From positions 10,425 to 74,424 of the forward strand of contig JAQUUB010000016.1 in assembly GCA_028694115.1 (NCBI GenBank): a stretch of DNA of 64,000 nt, read 5' to 3'. Each line of letters starts with the position of its first letter. The first letter of the stretch is position 1. The stretch comes from Lachnospiraceae bacterium. Its GTDB lineage: Bacteria > Bacillota_A > Clostridia > Lachnospirales > Lachnospiraceae. Made by a program: the position numbers and the translations under genes. Positions 1 to 14,249 of the stretch are shown one piece after another. A model generated the notes under the pieces. The model was not told the origin of the DNA. It worked only from the letters and a program-made list of their open reading frames with translations, and made no database searches.

Positions 1-1
1 A

Positions 2-85
2 GGTACTCCAAGTGAGAACACAGGTACTCCAAGTGGAAACACAGGTACTCCAAGTGAGAACGCAGGTACTCCAAGTGAAAATACA
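2..85 (+). repeat. Four tandem 21-bp repeats encoding GTPSENT-type heptapeptides
   Basis: Four in-frame 21-bp units (2-22, 23-43, 44-64, 65-85) each encode Gly-Thr-Pro-Ser-(Glu/Gly)-Asn-(Thr/Ala), and a partial ISPS unit follows. The units differ by only a few bases. The array probably continues upstream of the window as a Pro/Ser/Thr-rich linker, and such arrays often vary in length between strains. Confidence 0.9.
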
Positions 86-3000
86 ATTTCTCCAAGTATG
101 GATAAGGTTGTAGAGGACGAACTTGAAATAATTGACGGAATGATCGTAGGAAAAGGATACGATACCATTACCATATCAGTTAATTCATTAAAGTTAGGTG
201 AAAAGAAATTTTATAATCTTTTTATTGATACAAAGGCTGTTGGGATAACAGCAAATAATGAGAATATTGTAGGAAATAAAATAGGTAAATATAATAATTC
301 AGTGGAATCAGTAGTAATAAAAGGCCTAAATTCAGAGAGTTTTAAGATTTATGCTAAGGGTATTACGACTGATGTTTCTGCGTCCTTTGATGTTACATCT
401 GTTGAAACTGGTACTGTTAATATGACAGTGATGTCAGATGCAGAAGCAGTACGTAGAGTTTATGAATATCATGATGAAGATGTAAAAGTGACTGCTACCT
501 TAGAGGAAGCAAGTGCGATTCCAGATGATGCAGAACTAAACGTAACAGCAATCAAAGAAGGAAAAGAATATGATGATTATGTAAAAATGATAGAGGAAAA
601 ATCAAAAGAAGATCCTTCTCTATTGCTTAGTAATTATCTTCTTTATGATATTAGTTTCATACTAGATGGTCAGGAGATAGAGCCAGAACAGGGAACTGTC
701 TCAGTATCCATGGAATTCTTGAAAAAGCAGTTAAAGGAAGAAAATAGCACGAGTGTCAATGAAGTCGTGGTGCTCCATGTGAATGATGAAAATGAATGTG
801 AAGTGTTAGAAGATACCGAAGCAGATACTACAAAGAATGTAGTAAATCAGGTGGAATTTGTTACGGATAGCTTTTCGACTTACGTTATTGGTTCTAAGTA
901 TAAAATTAGTAAGGAGGTCTTTGATAGTAATAATTATAACTTAAATTATATACTTAATCATTTTAATCTCTTTATTTCTGGTAAAGTCAAAACAAGTCAT
1001 ACAGTAGGAGAAGTAGCGGTAGGAGGAGATGGCGATTTCACTGAATGTAATGGTGGAATTGGTCGTAGAGGCTATCAACATACGGAACCATCTTATATTC
1101 GAGGAATATTCAAGTCAAATGAAGGTAATGCAATTGAAACAGATAATCTTAATACAATGTCATTTTTTCTAGGTGAAATAAATAAAAAAAATAAGATATC
1201 ATTCAAAAGCCATAGTAATTTAGATGTTAAAATTACAGACGATTATATTAACTTTGAGGATGCTTTTGATAAAATTGAAGATGAAGTTGATTATTTGTCA
1301 AATAACCTTCATTTTGAACCAAGCAATTCAAAATATGAGATTGGTAAGAACTATAGATTAAAACTAAATAATACAAATTTGAAAATTGATATTTCAAAGG
1401 CAAAAGAAGGAACAGATACCTTTATTTTGGATGATTCTAATGGAACAATTTCTTTTAAATTTGCACCAGTTAAGAATTTTCAAAGCCTAGAATCAGGAAA
1501 GAAAACAAGTATAGTTTTTTTATTCCCCAAAGCTGATAGAATCGTAATTCCAACAGATGCAACACCATTTTTGGGTCATATTATTGCACCAAATGCAGAA
1601 ATTATAATGGATCGTGGAAATTATAATGGCTGTATGATTGGCACGAAACTCACAGGTAAAGCAGAAGGTCATATGTGGCCTTATAATGGAAAAATACTAA
1701 AACCAACGGAAGCTGTTTTAAAAGCATACAAGAATGTTGATGGAACTCCTGCGAAAGATCAGAAATTTCAGTTTGAGCTTTATAAAAAGATTGGGCTATC
1801 ATGGGTTAGGAAAGATACAGTTGATAATAAAGGCGCTGAAGTAACATTTAATATTAAGAAATATTTTAATAACTTTGAAAATGTATACACCTTTAAGATT
1901 GTGGAATCCTATAATGCTTCCCTTGGATATAAGAAAAACACGACGGATTATTATGCAAAGGTAACTTTATTGCCTAACGGAAACGTTAATACGATACAAT
2001 ATTATAATGATGAAGAATGTAAAGATTTAATAAATTCTTCTGAGGTTGTCTTTGATAATTTAAAAGAAACTCCAAAAGGAAAACTAAAAGTTCAAAAATT
2101 GGGTGGTTCTTCATGGGATAAATTTTATTTTACTATTAAAGACAGCAACAATAATTATATTTTGAATAGTAATGGAAAAATTGGCTGGCTCATCCATGGA
2201 AATGGTGAAACCGTAAAGGTAACAGATCTTCCACTTGGAACTTATACGATTAACGAAGTGAAGGATGAGGATGGAACATCTCTTGATTGGAAATTTCCTT
2301 ATATTGTTAGCTATTCTGATAAAGATGGTGGAGTAACGATAGATTCTACCGGAACGAAAGATTTTAAAATTATAAATATTCCAAAGCCAAGTGCAGATTT
2401 AGTTATTAAAAAATATGATAATTCTAATCAGCCATTAGATGGTGCAAAATTCACATTGGAATATAAAGATAAACATGATGTTTGGAAGACATTCTCGTAT
2501 GGTGATACAGCATTTAAAGATATAGAGACTAAAAATGGAACTCTAACAATCCCATATTTAGGAATGGAGACGAGAGATTTCAGAATTATGGAATCACAAG
2601 CTCCAATAGGTTATAAAAAATTAAATGAGCCACTTGTAACTTTTAAATTTTCATTTGATATTTTAAAGTGGGATAATGTATTTAGTGATATTAAATATGG
2701 CAATCCATCAAAATCAGTATCTTTTAGTTTAGGTACGCATCCAGGATGTTCACCATGTGGTAGTAAAACTTACACTGGTGGAATCGTAAATGTCTACAAT
2801 GAAAAGGTACTTGGTTCCATTGAGTTAACGAAAACGGATGAGAGTGGAACAAAGGCATTACCTGGAGCTCAGTTTGAATTATATAAGGATGGTAACTTAT
2901 TTAATACAACCAATACAACAGAAGGAATTGTTATTTCAGGAAGTATTGTAATAGGTAGTCAGTCCACGTACCAGGTAGATGAGAATACTGGTAAATTGAA

Positions 3001-6000
3001 GATTTCGAATCTGCCAGTAGGAACTTATTACTTGAAAGAAGTGAAAGCTCCGGATGGATATGAATTACCGGCGGAAAATGATGCAAAATCAAAGGAATTT
3101 ACGATATCACAAGATAATGTAAGCAATGATTTTGAAGAAACAATAATAAACAAACAATTGCTAGGTTCCTTTAATATTACAAAGGTTGATGAAAAAGGGC
3201 AGAAACTTCCTGGCGCAAAATTTAAATTGATTGATAGTAATCAAAACAGTATTTTGTTAAAAGGTGAAAATGGTGAATACCAATATGATCCAACGGATAA
3301 AGATAAAAAAGAAATCCTAGAAACAAGTGATAGTAGTACACTTACGGTTACTGGATTGCCATTTGGAACGTATGAATTAATAGAAGTAGAAGCACCGCAT
3401 GGTTATAAAAAAACTGTTTCTACTAATATTGTGATTGAATCAAGAAAAATAGTATCTCAAAATATAATAAATGCAAAGATTACTGCAAATGTAGAATTTT
3501 ATAAGGCAGATGCGGTATCAAAGAAAACAATTTCAGGTGCAACCTTTGAACTATACAAGGTGCAAGATAATAAAGACGGTGAACGGATAGATACACTAAC
3601 CGCTGGTGAAGATGGTAGAGTATATAAACAAAATCTAGATGAGGGTAATTATTATTTTAAAGAAAAAACTGCACCTTTAGGATATCAACGCGATACTAAA
3701 AAAATTTGGCTTACCATTTCAAAGAAGAATGATGGAACGATAATAAAGCTAGGAGACGCTGAAAATAAGATCTATAACGAACGAGCAACAGGAAGAGTAA
3801 AAATTGAGAAAACGGATGCTTCTAATAATCTTATCGATGGTGCTAAATTTAATTTATATTCGGATCATCCCCGAAATGCAATTGAGTCAATAATTCAAGA
3901 TAGATTATTAAGAAAACAATGGTTCTATTATGATAGTATTACGGTAAGTGGTTCCCAAATAATTAGTGATCTTCCATGGGGTGATTACTACCTTGTAGAA
4001 ACGGAAGCTCCTATTGGAAAAGTAAAAAGCACACAACATTATCCGTTTACAATTAGTGCAAACCACTTAGAGGATACGACTTATACTGGACCAAAGGCGA
4101 TTAAAAATGAAAGCATCAAAGGATCGGTAAAGCTTATTAAAACGGATTCTGTCACAAAAAGTCTAATGTCAGATGTAGAATTTAATTTGTTTAAAATTAA
4201 TGATAATTCATTGGGAGTACCAGTAGATGGAAAATTTATAACGAAAAATGGAGAGCTACAAGTTAATGATCTAGAGTATGGAAATTATTACTTTACTGAG
4301 AAAGATATGGTAAAGGGATATCAAGCGAACATTACAAAATATAAGTTCAGTATATTAAAACCAACAGCAGATAAAATAGAAATTGTTAAAGTAGAAAATG
4401 TACCTGTTTCAGGTAATGTAACAATTAGCAAGAATGATTCAAAGGATCATCCTTTAGCAGGAGCAGAGTTTACCCTGTATTCGAAAAAACCTACAAAATT
4501 ACAAATGATTTTAGCTTGTTTTAATAATGATAATAACCTTCAAGGCTATACTATAGTAAACTCAGATGATACAGGTGACGATGGTATTGTTACCTTTGAA
4601 AACTTAACATGGGGAGACTATGCAATAAAAGAAACAAGGGCTCCAAAAGGTTATGATTTAGATCCTGATGCAATCAGATATTTCACTGTCAATGCAGAGA
4701 AACAGTCGTTCACTTACAAATATGTTGATCAGGAATTAACTGGCTCTATAAAATTAAAAAAGGTGGATGTAGAAACACAAAAAACCTTATCAGGGGCAAA
4801 TTTCCAACTGTATAAGGATGGAGAGCCATATGATGATAAGATTCTGACAACAGATGAAAATGGCTTAATCAGTGTTCATGATTTACCATGGGGAACTTAT
4901 CATTTTGTTGAAACAAAAGCACCTAATGGATATATCTTAAATACGGAACATAAGACGGAAGAAATTACAATCGGAAAAGATACGGTATCAGGTACGCAGA
5001 CTTTCCAAACAGTTTCCAATCAACCAACTCAAATTTCCTTTAGTAAGAAGTCACTAACGAATGAGTCGGAAGTTGCTGGAGCCGTATTAGAAATAAGAGA
5101 AAAAGATAGCAAAGATTCAGATCCGATTGATCATTGGACCTCAACCGATAAACCACACTTGATTACAGCGAAACTAAATCCAAATACGACCTATGTGATG
5201 TCAGAAATTGAAGCACCAAAGGGTTATGGTTATGCAGATCCAATTGAATTTACCGTATCAGAAAATGGAACAGTAGGCAAGAATTCGCATACCGTTACCA
5301 TGAAAGATAGACCTTATAATTTAAGGGTTAGAAAAACGGATCTTAGTGGAAATGAATTAGCAGGGGCAGTTTTTGCTTTAATGAATTCTGCAAATGTAGA
5401 AATTGATAGTTGGAAATCAGATAATAAAGAGGACCATGTAGTAGATGTAGCAAAATTAACTCCTGGTGAAACCTATCAATTAATTGAAAAATCTGCACCA
5501 GAGGGCTATCAGACAGCAGAAAAAATCACCATTTCCATCAGCAGGAATGGCACGATAACAACCAATCCAAAGGATGCGTTTAATGACGGTATTGTCATGG
5601 TGAGAGATGAAGTAATTAGTGGAAATGTCATCCTCAAAAAGACAGATGCTACAGATAATAAACCATTAAAAGGTGTTTCCTTTGAATTATATAAAGGAAT
5701 TGCACCAAGTGGTACTTTGATAAAGAAATATGAAACCGATGATAAGGGTATCATTTCTGTCAATGGTCTATTATATGGAGACTACTACTTCAAAGAAATC
5801 ACGCCACAAGGATATCAGGAATATAAAGGAGTTTTATCCTTTAAGATTTCAGAGCAGGGAAAAGAAATTACACTAGATGTTAAGAATGAAAGAATGCTTG
5901 GTAGTGTTACACTGACAAAAATTGATGGAGTTAGTAAGAATGGTGTTTATCAAACGTTGTCAGGTGCGGAATTTAAATTATATACAAAGGAACCACAAAG

Positions 6001-6514
6001 TACGCCACAATCCATGCTGTCCTTCTTCTTAAAGAATGTTTACTATGAATATCAGGATAATGAAAATATTGTATATACGACAGGTGAGGATGGAAAACTT
6101 ACGGTTACCGGATTGCCTTGGGGAAGCTATTATTTTGTAGAGACAAAAGCTCCAAAAGGTTATGAAACTCCAATGAGTACGACCTATCCATTTATCATTG
6201 ATGCTACCAAGGAACAACAGATGACAATAGATATTGGTGAAATAAAGAACTTTAAAGAAACGACCAAACCACCTGTAAAGAAGTCGTCGAGCTCAGACGA
6301 AGAAACAACCACTACGACTTCTACAGGAAATAGTGTAACGGGTGTGTTAGGTATTGCTTCCGCACCAATATACGGTGTATTGGGTGCCAGAATGTCTCCA
6401 CTCACTGGCGATAACTTAAATGCTTTCTTCTGGCTAATGCTCCTATCCTTATCCGGTGGAACAGTTGGAACCGTTATATTTGTCAAAAAGAGAAAGAAAA
6501 GAAAAGTAGAATAA
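2..6514 (+). CDS. Giant sortase-anchored Cna-B repeat adhesin, 5'-truncated by the window edge
   Basis: The reading frame is open from base 2 with no start, so the N-terminus lies outside the window; 2170 residues are visible. The visible part starts with four GTPSENT-like heptapeptides. It continues with a choice-of-anchor-A type domain (about 930-1690 nt; VAVGGDGDF near its start, HIIAPNAEI and WPYNGKIL near its end). About 12-14 tandem Cna-B/prealbumin-like modules follow, each with a GA-x-F-x-LY strand and a GTYYLKE-like ending. A Ser/Thr-rich linker leads to the sorting signal SPLTGD, a hydrophobic segment and a KKRKKRK tail. Cna-B stalks are usually stiffened by Lys-Asn isopeptide bonds, and the SPLTG motif resembles the (S/P)PxTG signal used by clostridial class B sortases. 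The role is therefore inferred to be cell-wall-anchored adhesion. A terminator follows directly. The ligand is unknown. Confidence 0.93.
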   Translation, partial: GTPSENTGTPSGNTGTPSENAGTPSENTISPSMDKVVEDELEIIDGMIVGKGYDTITISVNSLKLGEKKFYNLFIDTKAVGITANNENIVGNKIGKYNNSVESVVIKGLNSESFKIYAKGITTDVSASFDVTSVETGTVNMTVMSDAEAVRRVYEYHDEDVKVTATLEEASAIPDDAELNVTAIKEGKEYDDYVKMIEEKSKEDPSLLLSNYLLYDISFILDGQEIEPEQGTVSVSMEFLKKQLKEENSTSVNEVVVLHVNDENECEVLEDTEADTTKNVVNQVEFVTDSFSTYVIGSKYKISKEVFDSNNYNLNYILNHFNLFISGKVKTSHTVGEVAVGGDGDFTECNGGIGRRGYQHTEPSYIRGIFKSNEGNAIETDNLNTMSFFLGEINKKNKISFKSHSNLDVKITDDYINFEDAFDKIEDEVDYLSNNLHFEPSNSKYEIGKNYRLKLNNTNLKIDISKAKEGTDTFILDDSNGTISFKFAPVKNFQSLESGKKTSIVFLFPKADRIVIPTDATPFLGHIIAPNAEIIMDRGNYNGCMIGTKLTGKAEGHMWPYNGKILKPTEAVLKAYKNVDGTPAKDQKFQFELYKKIGLSWVRKDTVDNKGAEVTFNIKKYFNNFENVYTFKIVESYNASLGYKKNTTDYYAKVTLLPNGNVNTIQYYNDEECKDLINSSEVVFDNLKETPKGKLKVQKLGGSSWDKFYFTIKDSNNNYILNSNGKIGWLIHGNGETVKVTDLPLGTYTINEVKDEDGTSLDWKFPYIVSYSDKDGGVTIDSTGTKDFKIINIPKPSADLVIKKYDNSNQPLDGAKFTLEYKDKHDVWKTFSYGDTAFKDIETKNGTLTIPYLGMETRDFRIMESQAPIGYKKLNEPLVTFKFSFDILKWDNVFSDIKYGNPSKSVSFSLGTHPGCSPCGSKTYTGGIVNVYNEKVLGSIELTKTDESGTKALPGAQFELYKDGNLFNTTNTTEGIVISGSIVIGSQSTYQVDENTGKLKISNLPVGTYYLKEVKAPDGYELPAENDAKSKEFTISQDNVSNDFEETIINKQLLGSFNITKVDEKGQKLPGAKFKLIDSNQNSILLKGENGEYQYDPTDKDKKEILETSDSSTLTVTGLPFGTYELIEVEAPHGYKKTVSTNIVIESRKIVSQNIINAKITANVEFYKADAVSKKTISGATFELYKVQDNKDGERIDTLTAGEDGRVYKQNLDEGNYYFKEKTAPLGYQRDTKKIWLTISKKNDGTIIKLGDAENKIYNERATGRVKIEKTDASNNLIDGAKFNLYSDHPRNAIESIIQDRLLRKQWFYYDSITVSGSQIISDLPWGDYYLVETEAPIGKVKSTQHYPFTISANHLEDTTYTGPKAIKNESIKGSVKLIKTDSVTKSLMSDVEFNLFKINDNSLGVPVDGKFITKNGELQVNDLEYGNYYFTEKDMVKGYQANITKYKFSILKPTADKIEIVKVENVPVSGNVTISKNDSKDHPLAGAEFTLYSKKPTKLQMILACFNNDNNLQGYTIVNSDDTGDDGIVTFENLTWGDYAIKETRAPKGYDLDPDAIRYFTVNAEKQSFTYKYVDQELTGSIKLKKVDVETQKTLSGANFQLYKDGEPYDDKILTTDENGLISVHDLPWGTYHFVETKAPNGYILNTEHKTEEITIGKDTVSGTQTFQTVSNQPTQISFSKKSLTNESEVAGAVLEIREKDSKDSDPIDHWTSTDKPHLITAKLNPNTTYVMSEIEAPKGYGYADPIEFTVSENGTVGKNSHTVTMKDRPYNLRVRKTDLSGNELAGAVFALMNSANVEIDSWKSDNKEDHVVDVAKLTPGETYQLIEKSAPEGYQTAEKITISISRNGTITTNPKDAFNDGIVMVRDEVISGNVILKKTDATDNKPLKGVSFELYKGIAPSGTLIKKYETDDKGIISVNGLLYGDYYFKEITPQGYQEYKGVLSFKISEQGKEITLDVKNERMLGSVTLTKIDGVSKNGVYQTLSGAEFKLYTKEPQSTPQSMLSFFLKNVYYEYQDNENIVYTTGEDGKLTVTGLPWGSYYFVETKAPKGYETPMSTTYPFIIDATKEQQMTIDIGEIKNFKETTKPPVKKSSSSDEETTTTTSTGNSVTGVLGIASAPIYGVLGARMSPLTGDNLNAFFWLMLLSLSGGTVGTVIFVKKRKKRKVE

Positions 6515-6524
6515 TCATGAATTT

Positions 6525-6556
6525 GTTCCCGGTCTTATATGGCCGGGAACTTTTTT
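6525..6556 (+). terminator. Rho-independent terminator of the adhesin gene
   Basis: Arms of 10 bp (6525-6534 and 6541-6550, one G-T pair) surround a 6-nt loop, and six T follow. It starts 11 bases after the adhesin stop codon. Confidence 0.9.
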
Positions 6557-6610
6557 GTCAGGTTCTATGTTTTTGCGCGATAACTTCATTTAATACATAA
6601 TTGCTAGATA

Positions 6611-6639
6611 TTGACATCCTATGGCACATGGTTTATTCT
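6611..6639 (+). promoter_or_regulatory. Promoter of the c-di-GMP riboswitch transcript
   Basis: A perfect TTGACA (6611-6616) and TATTCT (6634-6639) are separated by 17 bp. Transcription would begin near 6646, just upstream of the aptamer. Confidence 0.7.
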
Positions 6640-6683
6640 ATAACTATAGAAGGATTTGTAAATTGTAGTGTGTCATAAAGAAA

Positions 6684-6768
6684 ACTGCATATGGGCAAAC
6701 TTATTGAAAAGTAAGGACGCAAAGCTATAGGGTCTTACCTAAAGGGGAAGACAGCCAGTTGCCGGATA
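6684..6768 (+). ncRNA. Cyclic-di-GMP-I (GEMM-I) riboswitch aptamer
   Basis: The class I core is visible in order: GGGCAAAC, a P2 helix capped by a GAAA tetraloop (about 6702-6715), the conserved GGACGCAAAGC (6715-6725), TAGGG, a P3 helix GTCTT/AAGAC, and the closing AGCCAGTTGCCG (6752-6763). Class I aptamers bind c-di-GMP in this three-way junction. The aptamer lies between a strong promoter and a terminator hairpin, so it should control transcription of the CAP gene and possibly the protease gene beyond. The direction of control cannot be read from the primary sequence. Confidence 0.93.
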
Positions 6769-6790
6769 CACCGAAAGTATTCGTAAATGT

Positions 6791-6824
6791 AATAGCCAGT
6801 GTTTTTGCACCGGTTATTTTTTTT
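6791..6824 (+). terminator. Expression-platform terminator of the c-di-GMP riboswitch
   Basis: A hairpin (6791-6801 with 6807-6817, one mismatch and one G-T pair) is followed by T8 at 6817-6824. It lies between the aptamer and the CAP gene's ribosome-binding site, as expected for transcriptional riboswitch control. Confidence 0.8.
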
Positions 6825-6882
6825 CGGAAATCCCAATCCACCATAAGTAGTTTTCCACATCAAAAAGATGGGGGAAATGAAG

Positions 6883-7386
6883 ATGAAAAAGGAAAGATTC
6901 TATTCTGTAGTAAGAGCAGTTGTACTAACGATGATATTTGCAATGATGTTTTCTGTAACTACTTTTGCAGAGGATATATCAACGGTCAACAATGACTTGT
7001 TAACAAGTGTAAATACGTTAAGAGAATCAAAAGGGTTAGAGCCGTTAACCTTAGATACAGAACTTTCCGGATATGCAGCAATCAGAGCACAGGAAGCATC
7101 CACAAGCTGGACACATGTAAGACCAGATGGAACACAGGGATGTGATATGATAAACGCTAATAAATGGCGAGGAGAAAATCTTTCCTACATAAAATATACA
7201 AAGTTTGGTTTTTCCATATCAGAGCAGCAACAGGCAGCAAGTATCATGTATAATAACCTAGTCGCTTCTCCAACACATTATGACAATATGGTGTTTGGTA
7301 ATTATACAAAAATAGGGATTTCTACCTATATTTCAAAAGATGGGTCTGGAACAAAGCTGACAACTGCTTATATGTTTTCTAACTAG
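6883..7386 (+). CDS. Small secreted CAP (SCP/PR1-like) domain protein
   Basis: The 167-residue product has a classic signal peptide (MKKERF, a hydrophobic core, then TTFA before ED) and one CAP domain. Visible CAP features are the helix LLTSVNTLRESKGLEPL, the HVRPDG segment, GENLSY and the closing ISTYIS strand. The start at 6883 is preferred because GGGGGA at 6870-6875 is correctly spaced for it; 6868 is in frame but lacks a site. CAP proteins of the YkwD type are secreted, and their biochemical role in bacteria is mostly unknown. The gene is the first one behind the c-di-GMP-I riboswitch and its terminator, so its level should follow the motile/sessile signal. A strong terminator follows. 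Confidence 0.88.
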   Translation: MKKERFYSVVRAVVLTMIFAMMFSVTTFAEDISTVNNDLLTSVNTLRESKGLEPLTLDTELSGYAAIRAQEASTSWTHVRPDGTQGCDMINANKWRGENLSYIKYTKFGFSISEQQQAASIMYNNLVASPTHYDNMVFGNYTKIGISTYISKDGSGTKLTTAYMFSN

Positions 7387-7401
7387 AGTAATCAGATCTA
7401 T

Positions 7402-7440
7402 AAGAGAGATTCTGTTTCTGACAGAAATCTCTCTTTTTTT
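7402..7440 (+). terminator. Terminator after the CAP gene
   Basis: Arms beginning AGAGAGAT (7403) pair with ATCTCTCT (ending near 7434), with one bulged A, and a T8 run ends at 7440. I see no clear new promoter before the next gene, so partial read-through is possible. Confidence 0.85.
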
Positions 7441-7463
7441 AACTCAAAGAAAGGAGAATTTAT

Positions 7464-7577
7464 ATGAATAAAAAAAGATATTACAAAAAATGTAATTGTT
7501 TGCACTTGCTTTATAACCGTAGCAGTAATAAAATAATATCAGGGAGGGTTTCTTATGAAAAAAGGATACTTCAATAA
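7464..7577 (+). other. Short ORF with a good RBS, possibly a frameshifted secreted-peptide remnant
   Basis: A strong AAAGGAG (7450-7456) precedes an ATG at 7464. As read, the frame gives a 37-residue basic peptide that overruns the protease start codon. Removing one A from the A7 run at 7470-7476 would instead give MNKKDITKN followed by a hydrophobic stretch (VIVCTCFITVAVI) and a stop, which resembles a signal peptide. It could be a remnant of a secreted gene, a leader ORF that affects protease translation, or chance. Confidence 0.3.
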
Positions 7578-10500
7578 ATTAGCAATACTGCTTTCTCTAT
7601 GTATTATAATGACTTCTTTTCCTATGTCATGCGTAGGAGCAGTTGAAGATATACAAAGTTCTGAAGTTACAACGGAAAATAATAAAGAAGTTGTTTCATC
7701 TCTGATAGGCATGGAAACAGCAGTGGAAGATGATAGCGAAAATATCGTTGGGAGTGGTCAATTTCCTGTTTCTTATAACAATCTGGATTTAATGACTCCA
7801 TTAAGAACACAGCATACTCCAACTTGTCTTGCTTTTGCTTCAGTTGCAGCAATGGAAACTTCCCTTGTAAAACAGGGTATAGCAACAAAAGATGTGGATT
7901 TGTCCGAATTTTACCTAACAAAAGCTATGGGATATGCGAATATCCGTGTACCCGTATATAATAAGTTGCAGGACTGGGTAGGTATTACATCAGAAGCAAA
8001 TGCCCCAGAGAGTTTATATACGGAAGATGGTGGAAAACAAGAAGACTCCAGTTTTAGAAGGCCAGAATTATATCATATAAAAAATTCATTTAATCTGGAC
8101 ATTAATGATGTAGACTCAATAAAACAAGCAATCATGGATTACGGTTCGGTTCAGATGGATTACTGTTACGATTTCCAAAATGATGGACATGCGATGTGTA
8201 TTATAGGTTGGGATGATACTGTAGATGATGAAAATGACAGTTATGGACCAGGTGTATGGATTTGCAAGAACAGTTGGAACATGTACAGTAAATTCTGTTA
8301 CGATGAAAGTAAATACATTGGGACCATAACAGTTTTCGAATTAGAATCCGTAAATGAATACGACCATAATTACGGAACAATGACAGGGTTAACATCAAGT
8401 GGAAAGCATGATTACTCCTTTGAAATTAACCAGAATAGTGAAGGAAAGAAAGAAGAAGTTAAATCTCTGGGACTTGCCACTTCAACAAAAGGCGAGTATT
8501 CCTTTAAAATCTATAATTCAGAAAAAGAAGGTATTTTATCAGAGCAATCATTTACGGTGGAGCACCCGGGGTATTATACCATACCGCTTAATACATCTGT
8601 AGTAGAAGCACAAGGCAAAATAGTCCATGTTGAAGTTACCGGACCAGCAAAACCTTATAAGATGCATATACTTACAAAAGATACCGTACAAAATACCGTA
8701 AACACTATTTCCTTGAATTCAGACAATATTGTTATTCAGTCGGGCGATACGGGAGCTTCCATGGGAGCAACTCTGAATTATGGCGATGGAAACGATACGA
8801 TCCGCTACGAATCTATGGATACCAGTGTTGTAACCGTAAACAGTGAAGGATTACTAACGCCAGCTGCAGGAGGAGATACCTATGTAAAAGCCTATACGGA
8901 TACGGATACCGTCTGGTGTAAGGTCAGGGTATACCGAAAAATTAGTGAAGCATCTGGAATAGCAGCAGACGGAATGTACCCGGGTAATGGCAATAAATTA
9001 ACGCCGGTACCGACCTTATCCATGAACGGAACAGTCTTGGTATCAAATACCGACTATTTATTATCGGGCTATCGTGATAATGAAAACATAGGAACTGGAT
9101 ATGTGACGGTAACGGGTAAGGGATTTTATACTGGAACAAAGGATATTCCATTTTCAATATCCCAGGCAAATATAGAAGATGCAATCAGGCAAGACTCAAA
9201 AATGACCATGACGTATAACCCAGAAGGGGAATATAACCCAGAAGGACTTCTTCTATATAATGGACGTACCATTAACCTAATGGATTACACCATTACATCA
9301 GAAGCAAACACGATAGGAGCAAGAACCTTTACTATTAAGGGAAAGAATAACTTCTATGGTACAAAACAAATCACAATCAATATACTCAGAAAAAAGTCAG
9401 ATACCTATTTAAGAGTATATTTTGCCAGTACCGATAAAAATAAAGCACTCTGGAGAAATGAATCCGCAAGGGAAGCTCAATACACGGGCAACCCAGTAGA
9501 GCCAGATGTAGAAGTAGAAGGTACATTTAATGGTAAGACAATAAAATTTGCTGCGAAGGATTACACCGTAACATATTACAACAATGTATTAGATTCGTAT
9601 TATGACTATGATAAGAAAGTCTTCAGCATGTATAATCCTATTCGAACAGCAGGGCTTACGGTATCCTTAAACGGAGACTGTTGTTATGAGGGAGAAAGCG
9701 TTCCTTATGATGAGCATGGATATACCACAAACTTTGAAATCAAAGGATATATACCACCATACGAAGGGCCAGAGTACCTGAATATGGAAAATGCTACCGT
9801 GGAAGATACATTTACTTTCCCTTCTAGTTTTTTAAAGAAGGAATTTCATCCGATCGTAAAGGATGAAAACGGAAAAGTCTTAACGGAAGGCGAAGAATAT
9901 ACGGTATATGCACCGAGGTCTTATTTTATAGAACCGGAGCAAATAGAAATTGGATTGTTCGGAGTCGAAGAAAAAGGTTATCAAAATAGAAAAATCATTA
10001 CCTATACCGTAACCAAACGTCCGATTACCGATATTACAGTGGGAGAGGTAGCAGAACAGCAGTATACTGGCAAGGAGATAAAACCAATCCCAGTAATGAG
10101 TTGCGAAGGAGTAAAGTTTGACAATATTCAAATTAATGTTGATCAGTATCTTGATGTTTCGTACCAGAACAATATTAGTGTAGGAACAGCAACCATAACC
10201 ATCACAGGTAAAGAAAATGGACCATTCGATGGTAGCATAACAAAGACTTTTGTTATTAAAGGAAATTCTGGAACTGATCCAACACCGCCAGATGAAAATT
10301 CATCGGAATCTCTAACACTGGTACAAAAAGAAAAATATCAGATTGAAACAACTGTAGGAGCTACTTATACAACTAGCAATAAAAAAGTGGCTTCTGTAAG
10401 TAAAAAAGGTCTGGTCACCGCTGTGAAGGGTGGTACAGCAGATATTACAATAAATACATCTACCAAAACAAAAATTATCCATGTGACGGTAGACGTACCT

Positions 10501-11391
10501 AAAATTAGTGCTAAGAGTTACGAGGTTACAAGTGGTAACCAGATTACCTTAACCTTAAATGATACGACATTGACACCTGAATGGAAGAGTTTAAAGCCAA
10601 CCATAGCAACGGTATCCAATGGAGTTGTCACAGGTATATCAAAGGGTAGTACAAAAATTTATGCAACGGTACATGGTAAAAACTATATTTCTACAATAAA
10701 AGTTGTGACACCTGTTATTTCTAAGAGTAGCATTTACTTGAAAGTTACAAAGGGAATAACCTTGAAATTGAAAAACACAAAGCAATCGGTAATATGGAAA
10801 TCTTCGAAAGACACCATTGCAACCGTATCTCCTAAAGGTAAAGTCATAGGCACTGGACTTGGAACTGTGACAGTCACAGCATATGCAGGTGGAGATCAGT
10901 ATATTTGCGAAGTGGAGGTTATTCCAAATGAAAAACCGAAGCTTGTTGCATCTACCATTTACCTCACAAAAGGAGTATCGGGACAGCTGTCTATGAGAAA
11001 TTCTTATATGCAGCCTGTATGGACTGTACCAGATACGAATTATGCATCCATTACGGAAAATGGTAAGATAACTACTTATGCAAAAGGAAAAGTAAAAGCT
11101 ACAGGTATTTTATATGGAAAGAAGTATGCTGCAACGATTATTGTGGAAGAACCAGTACTTTCGTCAACGGAACTTACATTAATCAGTCCATTAACGAATA
11201 AGCAGAAATCGAAAGCAGCTACGATAAAGGTAAAGAATACAAAACAAAAGTTTACTTATGAAAGTGCAGATCCTAGCATAGCAACTGTAACTGTTAAGGG
11301 AAAGATTACTCCTATAAGTGTAGGAACTACTATTGTCACGGCTACGACTGCCGATGGGGTACTTCATGAGTGTTTGGTAACAATAGAATAA
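7555..11391 (+). CDS. Secreted papain-family (C1A) cysteine protease with Ig-like Big_2 domains
   Basis: The 1278-residue product starts with a signal peptide (MKKGYFNKLAILLSLCIIM). The C1A domain follows at about residues 70-260: LRTQHTPTCLAFASVAAMET carries the oxyanion Gln and the catalytic Cys, GHAMCIIGWDD the catalytic His, and CKNSWN the Asn. The papain-type Q-C-H-N set is complete. The rest, about 1000 residues, is beta-rich: Ig-like modules around 400-460, repeats ending in ITVGEVAEQQYTGK-like segments, and at least four C-terminal Big_2 modules with the IATVSPKGKV pattern. No sortase motif or transmembrane anchor is seen, so wall binding through the Ig-like domains is inferred. The RBS GGGAGGG sits 7 bases before ATG. 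Neighbours are a c-di-GMP-controlled CAP gene and a giant adhesin, which suggests surface-protein processing. Confidence 0.9.
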   Translation: MKKGYFNKLAILLSLCIIMTSFPMSCVGAVEDIQSSEVTTENNKEVVSSLIGMETAVEDDSENIVGSGQFPVSYNNLDLMTPLRTQHTPTCLAFASVAAMETSLVKQGIATKDVDLSEFYLTKAMGYANIRVPVYNKLQDWVGITSEANAPESLYTEDGGKQEDSSFRRPELYHIKNSFNLDINDVDSIKQAIMDYGSVQMDYCYDFQNDGHAMCIIGWDDTVDDENDSYGPGVWICKNSWNMYSKFCYDESKYIGTITVFELESVNEYDHNYGTMTGLTSSGKHDYSFEINQNSEGKKEEVKSLGLATSTKGEYSFKIYNSEKEGILSEQSFTVEHPGYYTIPLNTSVVEAQGKIVHVEVTGPAKPYKMHILTKDTVQNTVNTISLNSDNIVIQSGDTGASMGATLNYGDGNDTIRYESMDTSVVTVNSEGLLTPAAGGDTYVKAYTDTDTVWCKVRVYRKISEASGIAADGMYPGNGNKLTPVPTLSMNGTVLVSNTDYLLSGYRDNENIGTGYVTVTGKGFYTGTKDIPFSISQANIEDAIRQDSKMTMTYNPEGEYNPEGLLLYNGRTINLMDYTITSEANTIGARTFTIKGKNNFYGTKQITINILRKKSDTYLRVYFASTDKNKALWRNESAREAQYTGNPVEPDVEVEGTFNGKTIKFAAKDYTVTYYNNVLDSYYDYDKKVFSMYNPIRTAGLTVSLNGDCCYEGESVPYDEHGYTTNFEIKGYIPPYEGPEYLNMENATVEDTFTFPSSFLKKEFHPIVKDENGKVLTEGEEYTVYAPRSYFIEPEQIEIGLFGVEEKGYQNRKIITYTVTKRPITDITVGEVAEQQYTGKEIKPIPVMSCEGVKFDNIQINVDQYLDVSYQNNISVGTATITITGKENGPFDGSITKTFVIKGNSGTDPTPPDENSSESLTLVQKEKYQIETTVGATYTTSNKKVASVSKKGLVTAVKGGTADITINTSTKTKIIHVTVDVPKISAKSYEVTSGNQITLTLNDTTLTPEWKSLKPTIATVSNGVVTGISKGSTKIYATVHGKNYISTIKVVTPVISKSSIYLKVTKGITLKLKNTKQSVIWKSSKDTIATVSPKGKVIGTGLGTVTVTAYAGGDQYICEVEVIPNEKPKLVASTIYLTKGVSGQLSMRNSYMQPVWTVPDTNYASITENGKITTYAKGKVKATGILYGKKYAATIIVEEPVLSSTELTLISPLTNKQKSKAATIKVKNTKQKFTYESADPSIATVTVKGKITPISVGTTIVTATTADGVLHECLVTIE

Positions 11392-11603
11392 GAACTAAGT
11401 CCCTATGTTTGATAATTGAAATGTAATGAAGAATTGATAAATATCAACAGAAATAAGAGTTGTAGGTAGAATAAAGGAGAGAATGAGTTTGCAATATCAT
11501 GAAAGATAAGAAAGATGCAAATGAAGAATGGATGTTTATTTTGAGATAACATTAGTATTAGTTTTGAAATGGCATAAAAAAACAAATGAGTGGGAGAAAA
11601 AAT

Positions 11604-12476
11604 ATGTATTGTAGTAAATGTGGTTTTGAAATGAAAGATGGTGCCTTATTTTGTGAAAAATGTGGAACAAAGATAGAAAATAGCCAATCTTCATCGAAGA
11701 ATAAGGGTGTATTTGATAGCTCCATGAATTTATCTGTAAATGAAAAGCAGGAGGTTATTGGGAAATTACAAAACTTAATTCAACCTCTGAATAGATATTT
11801 AAAATTGTGTAAGGAGAAAGAAGCAACAGACCAGAAGCTTGAATGGCATAATAGAAGAGAAATAAAGAAAGACTGGGTTGCAATTATTTTGCCAATAATA
11901 TTTGGTCCACTTTTATTAACTGTCATTAATTGGTATATTGCAGATATGATTTTGACTTTAATATTTAAAGCGAAAGGCTACTCGGCACCATTTGCCGATG
12001 CGGTTGGGGGATTGGGCAAATTACTTCAATATATGTTTATTATTTTGCTGATATTTTGGATAATAGAAGGGATTATTATAGCTCCAATTTCAAAAAAGCT
12101 TGCAGATAAGAGATTGTCCTCTACTATACAAAAAAACACTGAAATGATAGGCAAATATGAGAGTCGGATTGAAAACATTAATAAACTGACAGAGGAAACA
12201 GTAATTGAAATAAATAGATATGTAGATGTGGTTCCACCAGATTACAGATATCCAATGGCTGTTGAATATCTGTACAAATCTTTTTTAAATGGAAGAGCAA
12301 ATTCAATACCTGAATCAGTGAACTTGTTTGAAGAGCAAGTACATAGATGGAAAGTAGAAAATTATCAAGTACAAATGCTAGATATGCAACAGCAGCAACA
12401 AAAGACAATGTCAGGTATACGTACGGCAACGACTATCAATGCGGCGGCGAGTGTTGCGCAATTCTTATTAAAATAA
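11604..12476 (+). CDS. Zinc-ribbon membrane protein of unknown function
   Basis: The product is 290 residues. It opens with a zinc-ribbon (MYCSKCGFEMKDGALFCEKC, two CxxC pairs), as in many Firmicute membrane proteins annotated zinc_ribbon_2. A Ser/Lys linker leads to two hydrophobic segments near residues 90-120 and 140-165, then a long helical, charged region and a Gln-rich tail (QQQQQK). The start at 11604 fits GGGAGA at 11592-11597; an in-frame ATG at 11586 would put that motif inside the gene. It stands alone, 210 bases after the protease gene and before the tyrS leader. No enzymatic motif is visible and I cannot assign a function. Confidence 0.75.
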   Translation: MYCSKCGFEMKDGALFCEKCGTKIENSQSSSKNKGVFDSSMNLSVNEKQEVIGKLQNLIQPLNRYLKLCKEKEATDQKLEWHNRREIKKDWVAIILPIIFGPLLLTVINWYIADMILTLIFKAKGYSAPFADAVGGLGKLLQYMFIILLIFWIIEGIIIAPISKKLADKRLSSTIQKNTEMIGKYESRIENINKLTEETVIEINRYVDVVPPDYRYPMAVEYLYKSFLNGRANSIPESVNLFEEQVHRWKVENYQVQMLDMQQQQQKTMSGIRTATTINAAASVAQFLLK

Positions 12477-12602: not shown

Positions 12603-12878
12603 AGTTAAGAAAAAAGCGATGATCAGAACAAGTAGCAGTCAGCAGAAGATACAGAGAAGAGCCGGTTGGTGAGAGGCCTATTGGAGCGATTGTGAATACG
12701 TCTGGGAGCTTCGTACCGAAAAGTAATGAGTAGGCTACGGCGTGTGCGCACGTTACAGCGTGAGTGGTATTCGTGAAGAACAGTACCCATTGAGGCAGAT
12801 AGTGCGAACTATTTGTGAAATAAGGTGGTAACACGTGAGTTTGATGCTCTCGTCCTTTTATGGACGGGAGCTTTTTTT
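12603..12878 (+). promoter_or_regulatory. Tyrosine T-box leader with terminator
   Basis: The leader carries Stem I elements (AGAGAGCCGGTTGGTGAGAG type, then an AGTAGGCTAC apex). A UAC tyrosine codon at 12697-12699 lies in GTGAATACGTC at the specifier position. The T-box core AAGGTGGTAACACG is at 12822-12835; its TGGT (12826-12829) complements an ACCA tRNA end, as expected for tRNA-Tyr with discriminator A. The terminator hairpin is 12846-12855/12862-12871 followed by T7. Uncharged tRNA-Tyr should stabilise the antiterminator and switch on tyrS. Confidence 0.95.
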
Positions 12879-12989: not shown

Positions 12990-14249
12990 ATGTCACAGGA
13001 AAGAAATGTTTATGACGTACTTGTGGAAAGAGGATTCATTGAACAATGTACACATGAAAAAGAGGTAAGGGAACTATTAGAGAAGGAAAAGGTGTCTTTT
13101 TATATTGGTTTTGATGCAACAGCCGATAGCTTAACAGCAGGACATTTCCTTACTGTAATGGCCATGATGCATATGCAAAGGGCAGGTCATAGACCCATCG
13201 CCTTATTAGGTGGTGGTACTACCATGATTGGTGACCCATCCGGGAAATCGGATATGCGTACCATGATGACAATGGAAACAATTCAGCACAATGCAGATTG
13301 CTTTTACAAACAGTTAAGCAGATTTATTAGTTTTGATAATGACAGTGCAATTATTGCAAACAATGCAGACTGGTTGCTGGATTTGAATTATGTAGATTTT
13401 TTAAGAGAAGTAGGGGTTCATTTTTCTGTTAATAAAATGCTTGCAGCTGATTGCTACAAACAGCGTATGGAAAAGGGCTTAACTTTCTTTGAATTTAATT
13501 ATATGTTAATGCAGTCCTATGACTTCTGGAAATTAAATCAGTTATATGGCTGTAAGCTGGAAATGGGTGGTAACGATCAATGGAGCAACATCATTGGTGG
13601 TGTAGAGTTGATTCGTAGAAAAGAGCAAAAAGAAGCCTTTGGTCTGACCTTTAAATTATTAACAACGAGTGAAGGAATTAAAATGGGTAAGACTATGAAG
13701 GGTGCTGTATGGCTTGATCCTGCAAAGACCACTCCATATGAATTCTTCCAGTACTGGCGTAATATTGAAGACGTAAAAGTTGAAGAGTGTCTTGGACTTT
13801 TAACATTCTTACCAATGGATGAGGTGCATAGCCTCTGTGCCAAGGATGGGGCAGAAATCAACCATGCAAAAGAAGTTCTTGCTTATGAAATCACAAAAAT
13901 TGTTCATGGGGAAGAAGAGGCACAAAAAGCACTTGATGCTGCAAAAGCTATTTTTGCAAATGGTGGGAAAAGTGAAGATATGCCTACCACTTTGATGAGT
14001 AAAGAGGAAATGGAAGCAGGAAAAGAGTTAATCTCTTTATTGGTAGAAACCAAACTTTGTGCAACACGTTCAGAAGCCAGAAGAATAATTGAACAGGGTG
14101 GAGTTACTGTAAATGATGTGAAAATCACAGATATTAAGCAGATTTTTACAGGGAATGATTTTGATAGCGATGGCTCTTTGATTATTAAAAAAGGGAAAAA
14201 GGGATTTCACCAGATAAAATACCTTGTAAAGGAGGGTTCAGATGAATAA
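12990..14249 (+). CDS. tyrS: Tyrosyl-tRNA synthetase
   Basis: The 419-residue product is a cytoplasmic class Ic aminoacyl-tRNA synthetase that charges tRNA-Tyr. The start of the Rossmann core reads [17 protein letters not shown], where AGHF is the HIGH-box variant. [17 protein letters not shown] and the tyrosine-site [11 protein letters not shown] follow. The KMSKS variant is KMGKTM near residue 231, and the C-terminal S4 RNA-binding domain contains [19 protein letters not shown]. The length is normal for the family. The RBS GAAAGGAG precedes ATG. Expression is governed by the Tyr T-box immediately upstream. The stop codon overlaps the start of a small membrane-protein gene by 8 bases, so the two are probably translationally coupled. 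Confidence 0.98.

What the first reader, a model, noticed from the sequence alone, without database searches (positions are those of the whole stretch)
1..11391. Giant adhesin, c-di-GMP riboswitch, CAP protein and papain-like protease form a possible attach/release locus
In order: a Cna-B adhesin with an SPLTG sorting signal, a c-di-GMP-I riboswitch with terminator, a secreted CAP protein, and a secreted C1A protease with a complete Q-C-H-N set. In Clostridioides difficile, c-di-GMP riboswitches oppositely control an (S/P)PxTG-anchored adhesin and the protease PPEP-1 that releases it. This locus has the same logic with unrelated parts: a papain-type enzyme and a CAP protein instead of a zinc protease. 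That the protease cuts the adhesin is inference.
Basis: partly seen in the sequence, partly recalled or inferred. Interest (0 to 1): 0.72.

Follow-up and report, generated by a model that had tools for sequence, protein, structure and literature searches.

The report
c-di-GMP switch controlling secreted CAP protein
In a bacterium of the family Lachnospiraceae, an RNA switch for the signal c-di-GMP sits between a giant surface adhesin and a small secreted CAP protein; relatives show that the switch goes with the CAP protein and not with the protease further along, which makes the CAP protein a candidate for letting cells change or shed their adhesin.

Summary
All four elements exist as described. 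The grouping needs changing.

The c-di-GMP-I riboswitch (6684-6766) serves the CAP gene: riboswitch and CAP lie between two strong terminators, and the papain-like protease lies beyond the second.

Four of four close kin keep adhesin end, riboswitch, CAP and tyrS in that order, without the protease; the two whose contigs reach further have a sortase before the adhesin. The protein search found no close relative of the protease.

In 37 genomes carrying this CAP subfamily, 28 of 32 class-I riboswitches found lie directly upstream of CAP, in several genomic settings. Two loci elsewhere put more distant CAP-domain proteins under the same riboswitch. My paper searches listed nothing on this link.

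In the window the terminator layout suggests OFF at high c-di-GMP, but its predicted antiterminator is no better than shuffles. Four tandem leaders (three of them near-copies) have strong ones. Fifteen translational leaders are unresolved and may be ON.

Best reading: a c-di-GMP-controlled CAP protein that changes the sortase-anchored surface, possibly by cutting the adhesin, as enterococcal PrgA (a CAP-domain protein) is thought to do to PrgB. CAP would then stand where PPEP-1 stands in C. difficile. Cleavage is inference.

The parts
2..6514 (+). Giant sortase-type adhesin, 5' end cut by the window: 12 SpaA stretches; sorting region VLGIASAPIYGVLGARMSPLTGD at 6344-6412
950..1672 (+). pAdhesive_15 (PF20597) putative ice-binding-like adhesive domain of the adhesin (residues 317-557)
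   Evidence: E 8e-15
6525..6550 (+). Intrinsic terminator of the adhesin transcript
   Evidence: -19.7 kcal/mol, z -6.2
6611..6639 (+). Promoter-like site TTGACA-17-TATTCT before the riboswitch
   Evidence: 10 of 12 matches; a consensus match only: 33 sites in the stretch, 24.7 on average in shuffles
6684..6766 (+). c-di-GMP-I riboswitch aptamer (RF01051)
   Evidence: 69.3 bits, E 1.7e-11
6791..6818 (+). Terminator hairpin of the riboswitch expression platform
   Evidence: -11.3 kcal/mol, z -4.7
6883..7386 (+). Secreted CAP-domain protein (ORF from 6868; likely start 6883)
7402..7435 (+). Intrinsic terminator after CAP, separating it from the protease
   Evidence: -16.8 kcal/mol, z -3.9, followed by a U run; the simple scan did not list it
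7555..11391 (+). Secreted Cwp84-like C1A protease with Big_2 domains; neighbour, not part of the conserved unit
11586..12476 (+). Zinc-ribbon protein, not found in the kin loci searched
12610..12860 (+). T-box leader of tyrS (synteny anchor)
12990..14249 (+). tyrS; directly follows CAP in four kin

Best explanation
The riboswitch is a dedicated c-di-GMP sensor for the secreted CAP protein. In this window c-di-GMP most likely lets the terminator form and shuts CAP off, so CAP is made when c-di-GMP falls (the motile or leaving state). CAP then acts outside the cell on the sortase-anchored surface, most plausibly by processing or releasing the neighbouring giant adhesin. It would do the job of PPEP-1 in C. 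difficile with the fold of enterococcal PrgA. The papain-like protease is a neighbour beyond CAP's terminator. Shown by sequence: the gene order, the riboswitch-CAP pairing across genomes, the terminator hairpins. Predicted: OFF polarity (about 0.7 for this window). Inferred: that CAP acts on the adhesin (about 0.35) and does so by cleavage (about 0.25).
For: 28 of 32 RF01051 sites found in 37 CAP-carrying genomes lie directly upstream of CAP; a 29th (G761) sits at a contig end after FliS while the CAP of G761 opens another contig. In the 48-genome group, riboswitches were found in 21 of 33 CAP+ and 1 of 15 CAP- genomes (Fisher p 0.0004). Four of four kin (G372, G063, G403, G010) keep adhesin end-riboswitch-CAP-tyrS; G372 and G063 also show a sortase before the adhesin. 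The matching sortase group (E<=1e-60) is in 20 of 33 CAP+ and 3 of 15 CAP- genomes (p 0.013). Of 20 sortase loci fetched, 7 lead to a long surface-protein ORF, two of them complete (4579 and 4453 aa, SPVTG), five cut by contig ends. CAP lies downstream of flagellin and FliS in 10 loci (two also checked by Pfam). Antiterminators using the aptamer core: z -3.3 to -4.4 in four tandem leaders, p 0.03 in G372. Precedent: CAP-domain PrgA, likely protease of adhesin PrgB (passages of PMC10588982; PDB title of 6z9k).
Confidence: 0.45

Rival explanations
1. CAP is a motile-state cell-wall or flagellum-associated protein with no business with the adhesin; standing next to the adhesin here is incidental.
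For: CAP lies downstream of flagellin and FliS in 10 loci and next to purF-like/azlC or HU-like genes in others; FliS is in 47 of 48 genomes of that group. CAP and the giant adhesin are unlinked there.
Against: The sortase group still co-occurs with CAP (20 of 33 against 3 of 15; cut-off chosen after seeing the scores, and one of the query sequences was that of G744), and four of four kin of the other group keep the adhesin-CAP order.
Confidence: 0.33
2. One reading: the papain-like protease releases the adhesin under the same riboswitch.
For: Adjacent, secreted, C1A fold with Q, C, H and N; nearest solved relative Cwp84 processes surface proteins (passages of PMC5842191).
Against: Terminator between CAP and protease; absent from the kin loci; only weak C1A matches (best E 2.5e-10) in 30 of 145 relatives, those in the kin on other contigs than the CAP locus; no close relative found; Q-C spacing off by one.
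Confidence: 0.08
3. c-di-GMP turns CAP ON, and CAP is a matrix or adhesion component of sessile cells.
For: In the translational leaders the strand that closes the aptamer (GCCAUGA) is complementary to the start region, so a bound aptamer could free the start codon (by inspection; supported by the fold numbers in G725 only).
Against: Window, four kin and G763:C8 use a terminator that does not overlap the aptamer; four tandem leaders have near-perfect antiterminators, which means OFF for their first aptamer.
Confidence: 0.12

Closest known systems
C. difficile CD2831 / PPEP-1 (ZmpI) c-di-GMP system (passages of PMC4591827 and PMC11477304)
   Same: Sortase-anchored adhesin next to a secreted protein behind a class I c-di-GMP riboswitch; SPxTG/PPxTG-type sorting signals; short repeats just upstream of the sorting signal.
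   Different: The secreted protein is a CAP protein, not a zinc protease; no riboswitch found upstream of the adhesin in the two kin read; cleavage untested.
Enterococcal PrgA / PrgB (passages of PMC10588982 and PMC8265641; PDB 6z9k and 6z9l)
   Same: A CAP-domain protein encoded next to a cell-wall-anchored adhesin; PrgA is thought to cleave PrgB.
   Different: PrgA is itself wall-anchored, on a long stalk, and plasmid-borne; this CAP is a single small secreted domain behind a riboswitch.
Cwp84 of C. difficile (PDB 4ci7, 4d59)
   Same: Nearest solved relative of the window's protease: C1A domain followed by a beta-rich region.
   Different: Pfam shows Big_2 domains and no cell-wall-binding repeats; shorter active-site loops; about 20% identity.
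BB0689 and other bacterial CAP proteins
   Different: No function found for BB0689 (passage of PMC5842191).

Membership tests
c-di-GMP-I riboswitch (RF01051) | Covariance-model score above the gathering cut-off | tested here: met
   69.3 bits against 35
c-di-GMP-I riboswitch (RF01051) | Binds c-di-GMP rather than a related dinucleotide | not testable with these tools
   Ligand inferred from family only
c-di-GMP-I riboswitch, OFF type | Terminator compatible with the aptamer, antiterminator excluding it | tested here: inconclusive
   Terminator does not overlap the aptamer; antiterminator predicted for transcripts ending at 6808-6811 but not better than shuffles in the window
CAP superfamily (PF00188) | Profile match and CAP fold | tested here: met
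CAP superfamily (PF00188) | His-Glu-Glu-His cavity tetrad (recalled) | tested here: inconclusive
   E103 and H137 invariant, H83 in at least 90% of 60 rows; second Glu not evident; mapping by eye
PPEP-1-type c-di-GMP release system | Adhesin and secreted partner inversely controlled by two c-di-GMP riboswitches | tested here: inconclusive
   Only one RF01051 in each of G372 and G063 and no other riboswitch in their 20 kb loci; the window's upstream DNA is not held
PPEP-1-type c-di-GMP release system | Partner cleaves the adhesin near its anchor | not testable with these tools
   Needs protein work
PrgA-type adhesin-processing CAP protease | Proteolytic CAP domain acting on the neighbouring adhesin | not testable with these tools
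C1A papain-like protease | Fold and catalytic Q, C, H, N | tested here: inconclusive

The most novel reading that the evidence does not exclude
Lachnospiraceae run a c-di-GMP-gated adhesin release system in which a small secreted CAP-domain protease, under its own class I riboswitch, cuts giant sortase-anchored adhesins at the repeated VLGxxxxP motifs just upstream of the sorting signal. It would be an independent counterpart of PPEP-1 built on the CAP fold, and the first CAP protein that I know of under a second-messenger riboswitch.
Probability: 0.2. Interest if true: 0.85.

Novelty: new variant of a known kind. Interest (0 to 1): 0.6.

Why it matters
Bacterial CAP domains are poorly understood: the review passage read says that they are less characterised than their eukaryotic relatives and that assays of BB0689 found no function (PMC5842191). 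A signal that controls them (c-di-GMP), a nearby candidate partner (a sortase-anchored adhesin) and flagellar neighbours in relatives make the function directly testable. If CAP does process the adhesin, two unrelated protein folds have been put in the same place under the same RNA sensor in Firmicutes.

Tried and rejected
Protease as part of the unit: rejected. Second riboswitch upstream of the adhesin: not found in the two kin that could be read. Phage contigs as a source of more CAP loci: six IMG/VR loci, at most 39% identity over parts, no use. Start-site accessibility as a test of polarity in translational leaders: no clear answer. Antiterminator test for the window itself: negative. Weak Rfam matches at CAP loci without riboswitch: no c-di-GMP family at E<=2 in 11 of the 14 loci; the other three rest on the RF01051 search and a motif scan. 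Tree of 41 of 43 CAP sequences (G756 and G761 left out as contig fragments): the riboswitch label needs 7 changes, 11.8 on average in shuffles, so it is clustered but was gained or lost several times; the window's place is unsure. Structure of the protease: low confidence.

Literature on CAP domains with c-di-GMP riboswitches: searches found no paper holding the terms; one search listed 20 of 797 and one search listed 15 of 46, none of the listed titles or abstract openings on this link. Papers were seen as search listings and as passages (PMC4591827, PMC11477304, PMC5842191, PMC10318531, PMC10588982, PMC8265641); none was read whole. Searches were two further searches: 63 led to PMC5842191 and PMC10318531, 83 listed nothing of use.

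The VLG repeat was searched only in loci that I had fetched, and all hits are from CAP+ genomes that I had chosen, so it is not shown to follow CAP. The 399-aa protein beside CAP in G744 has no Pfam match.
Full report
What is there. The window starts inside a giant adhesin gene (2-6514, at least 2170 aa; 12 SpaA stretches, one pAdhesive_15 domain, SPLTG anchor). It is followed by a strong terminator (6525-6550, -19.7 kcal/mol), a promoter-like site (6611-6639), a c-di-GMP-I aptamer (6684-6766, 69.3 bits), a terminator hairpin (6791-6818), a CAP-domain protein (6883-7386), another strong terminator (7402-7435), a Cwp84-like C1A protein with Big_2 domains (7555-11391), a zinc-ribbon protein, and a T-box plus tyrS. 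The terminators before and after riboswitch and CAP suggest a transcript for CAP alone.

Relatives. The window's genome is not held. tyrS places it in Lachnospiraceae (the best 80 loci kept). CAP of this subfamily is rare: 7 of 397 family genomes at E<=1e-12 (single sequence) and 2 of 392 order genomes at E<=1e-25 (profile). Four kin have adhesin end, c-di-GMP-I riboswitch, CAP and tyrS in that order with no gene between CAP and tyrS: G372, G063, G403 and G010. In G372 and G063, whose contigs reach further, the adhesins are 3835 and 1931 aa with SpaA repeats and follow a sortase gene (Pfam); in G403 and G010 the contig begins within the adhesin. The window differs by having the protease and the zinc-ribbon gene between CAP and tyrS. 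tblastn finds neither in the loci of G372, G063 and G010; in G403, which was not in that search, CAP and tyrS are too close to hold them. The protease's catalytic part gives only weak C1A matches in 30 of 145 relatives, and those in the kin lie on other contigs than the CAP locus. A search of about 5.8 billion proteins, which scored the 7991 candidates sharing most words, found no close relative (next best 24% identity over 28%).

The riboswitch goes with CAP. One group of 48 genomes carries CAP in 33 (38 loci at E<=1e-25). RF01051 was searched in those 33 plus the four kin: 32 sites in 25 genomes. By coordinates 28 of the 32 lie directly upstream of CAP, at 24 loci, four of them with two aptamers in tandem. 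Of the four others, one (G761) lies at a contig end just after FliS while the CAP of G761 opens another contig, so it is probably the same arrangement cut by assembly; for G726:C15 and two sites in G724 no CAP was found downstream. Of 42 CAP loci in these genomes, 24 have the riboswitch, 4 are cut by the contig within 150 bases, and 14 have none found. In the 15 CAP- genomes of the group one riboswitch was found: 21 of 33 against 1 of 15, Fisher p 0.0004. One search used stricter filters and scored fewer candidates, which may inflate this contrast. One search also covered 50 other Lachnospiraceae, none with a strong match to this CAP (G015 and G051 have weak ones). In all, the 65 genomes held 59 sites in 25 genomes; I examined 57 (two at contig ends were not). 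Judged by eye, their targets are diverse. Three aptamers at two loci (G029 in tandem, G058) precede more distant CAP-domain proteins (hmmsearch 4.5e-9 and 2.8e-9). So CAP proteins recur as outputs of this riboswitch.

Genomic settings of riboswitch-CAP: adhesin-[riboswitch-CAP]-tyrS in the kin; flagellin-FliS-[riboswitches-CAP] (10 flagellin-FliS-CAP loci in all, 6 with and 4 without the riboswitch); purF-like gene-[riboswitch-CAP]-azlC; HU-like gene-[riboswitch-CAP] with a sortase nearby in G744 (HU by eye). The pair has moved as a unit or been kept through rearrangement.

Link to the sortase-adhesin surface. A sortase of the same group (E<=1e-60) is in 20 of 33 CAP+ and 3 of 15 CAP- genomes of the 48 (p 0.013). 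The cut-off was chosen after seeing the scores, one of the three query sequences came from G744 itself, 45 of 48 genomes have some match at E<=1e-20, and many of these assemblies are fragmented. Of 20 sortase loci fetched (18 CAP+, 2 CAP-), 7 lead to a long surface-protein ORF: G090 (4579 aa, SPVTG) and G733 (4453 aa, SPVTG) complete, G764 with at least 4229 aa, and shorter pieces cut by contig ends in G757, G749, G763 and G728. In four of the 20 a periplasmic-binding/GGDEF diguanylate cyclase follows the sortase (two checked by Pfam). Several substrates share a repeated VLGxxxxP motif just before the sorting signal (window VLGIASAPIYGVLGARMSPLTGD at 6344-6412; G063 VLGAIAAPESGVLGDIAAPLTGD). 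In C. difficile the PPEP-1 sites also lie directly upstream of the sorting motif (passages of PMC4591827). The motif may equally be part of sortase recognition.

Polarity. In the window, the kin and G763:C8 the terminator does not overlap the aptamer, so a bound aptamer permits termination; regulation then needs an antiterminator in the free state. One is predicted for window transcripts ending at 6808-6811, but its duplex energy against shuffles is not significant for the window (p 0.68), G403 (0.72) or G010 (0.58), marginal for G063 (0.08) and G763:C8 (0.11), and nominally significant for G372 (0.03). The four tandem leaders have near-perfect antiterminators (z -3.3 to -4.4) between the core of their first aptamer and the terminator's 5' arm; three of the four (G767, G722, G724) are near-copies, so this is about two independent cases. 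The remaining 15 single leaders look translational; folding changed start-site access by more than 0.1 in one only (G725, upward), and inspection suggests ON. Polarity may therefore differ between lineages.

Verdict. The attach/release idea is reasonable but with a different actor. What is solid is a recurrent regulatory link in Lachnospiraceae, c-di-GMP-I riboswitch to secreted CAP protein, that I did not find in print. What CAP does to the surface is open and can be tested directly.

Noticed in passing
L157, L159, L165, L101 (upstream of CAP): Two c-di-GMP-I aptamers in tandem before CAP: the first with a terminator and near-perfect antiterminator (OFF), the second with a translational platform that may be ON; together they could give a band-pass response.
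   Followed up: partly
window 6344-6412; L098, L099, L118, L268, L280, L286: Repeated VLGxxxxP motif directly upstream of the sorting signal in several sortase substrates, two or three copies.
   Followed up: partly
L277 12985-14928, L282 5345-7297: Periplasmic-binding plus GGDEF protein encoded between sortase and a long surface-protein ORF, linking c-di-GMP synthesis to the adhesin locus.
   Followed up: partly
L262 and L263: More distant CAP-domain proteins (324 and 290 aa) downstream of c-di-GMP-I riboswitches in two other Lachnospiraceae, one with tandem aptamers.
   Followed up: partly
window 7464 onwards: Short ATG frame with an AAAGGAG site just upstream, between the CAP terminator and the protease, running into the protease start; meaning unknown.
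   Followed up: no
L231 (G061:C39): Two divergent c-di-GMP-I riboswitches about 0.8-0.9 kb apart, each facing a secreted-looking protein (456 aa, and at least 1004 aa).
   Followed up: no
L171 12779-13978, L175 12957-14135: Roughly 390-400-aa secreted-looking protein converging on CAP, in G744 beside a sortase; the G744 one has no Pfam match.
   Followed up: no
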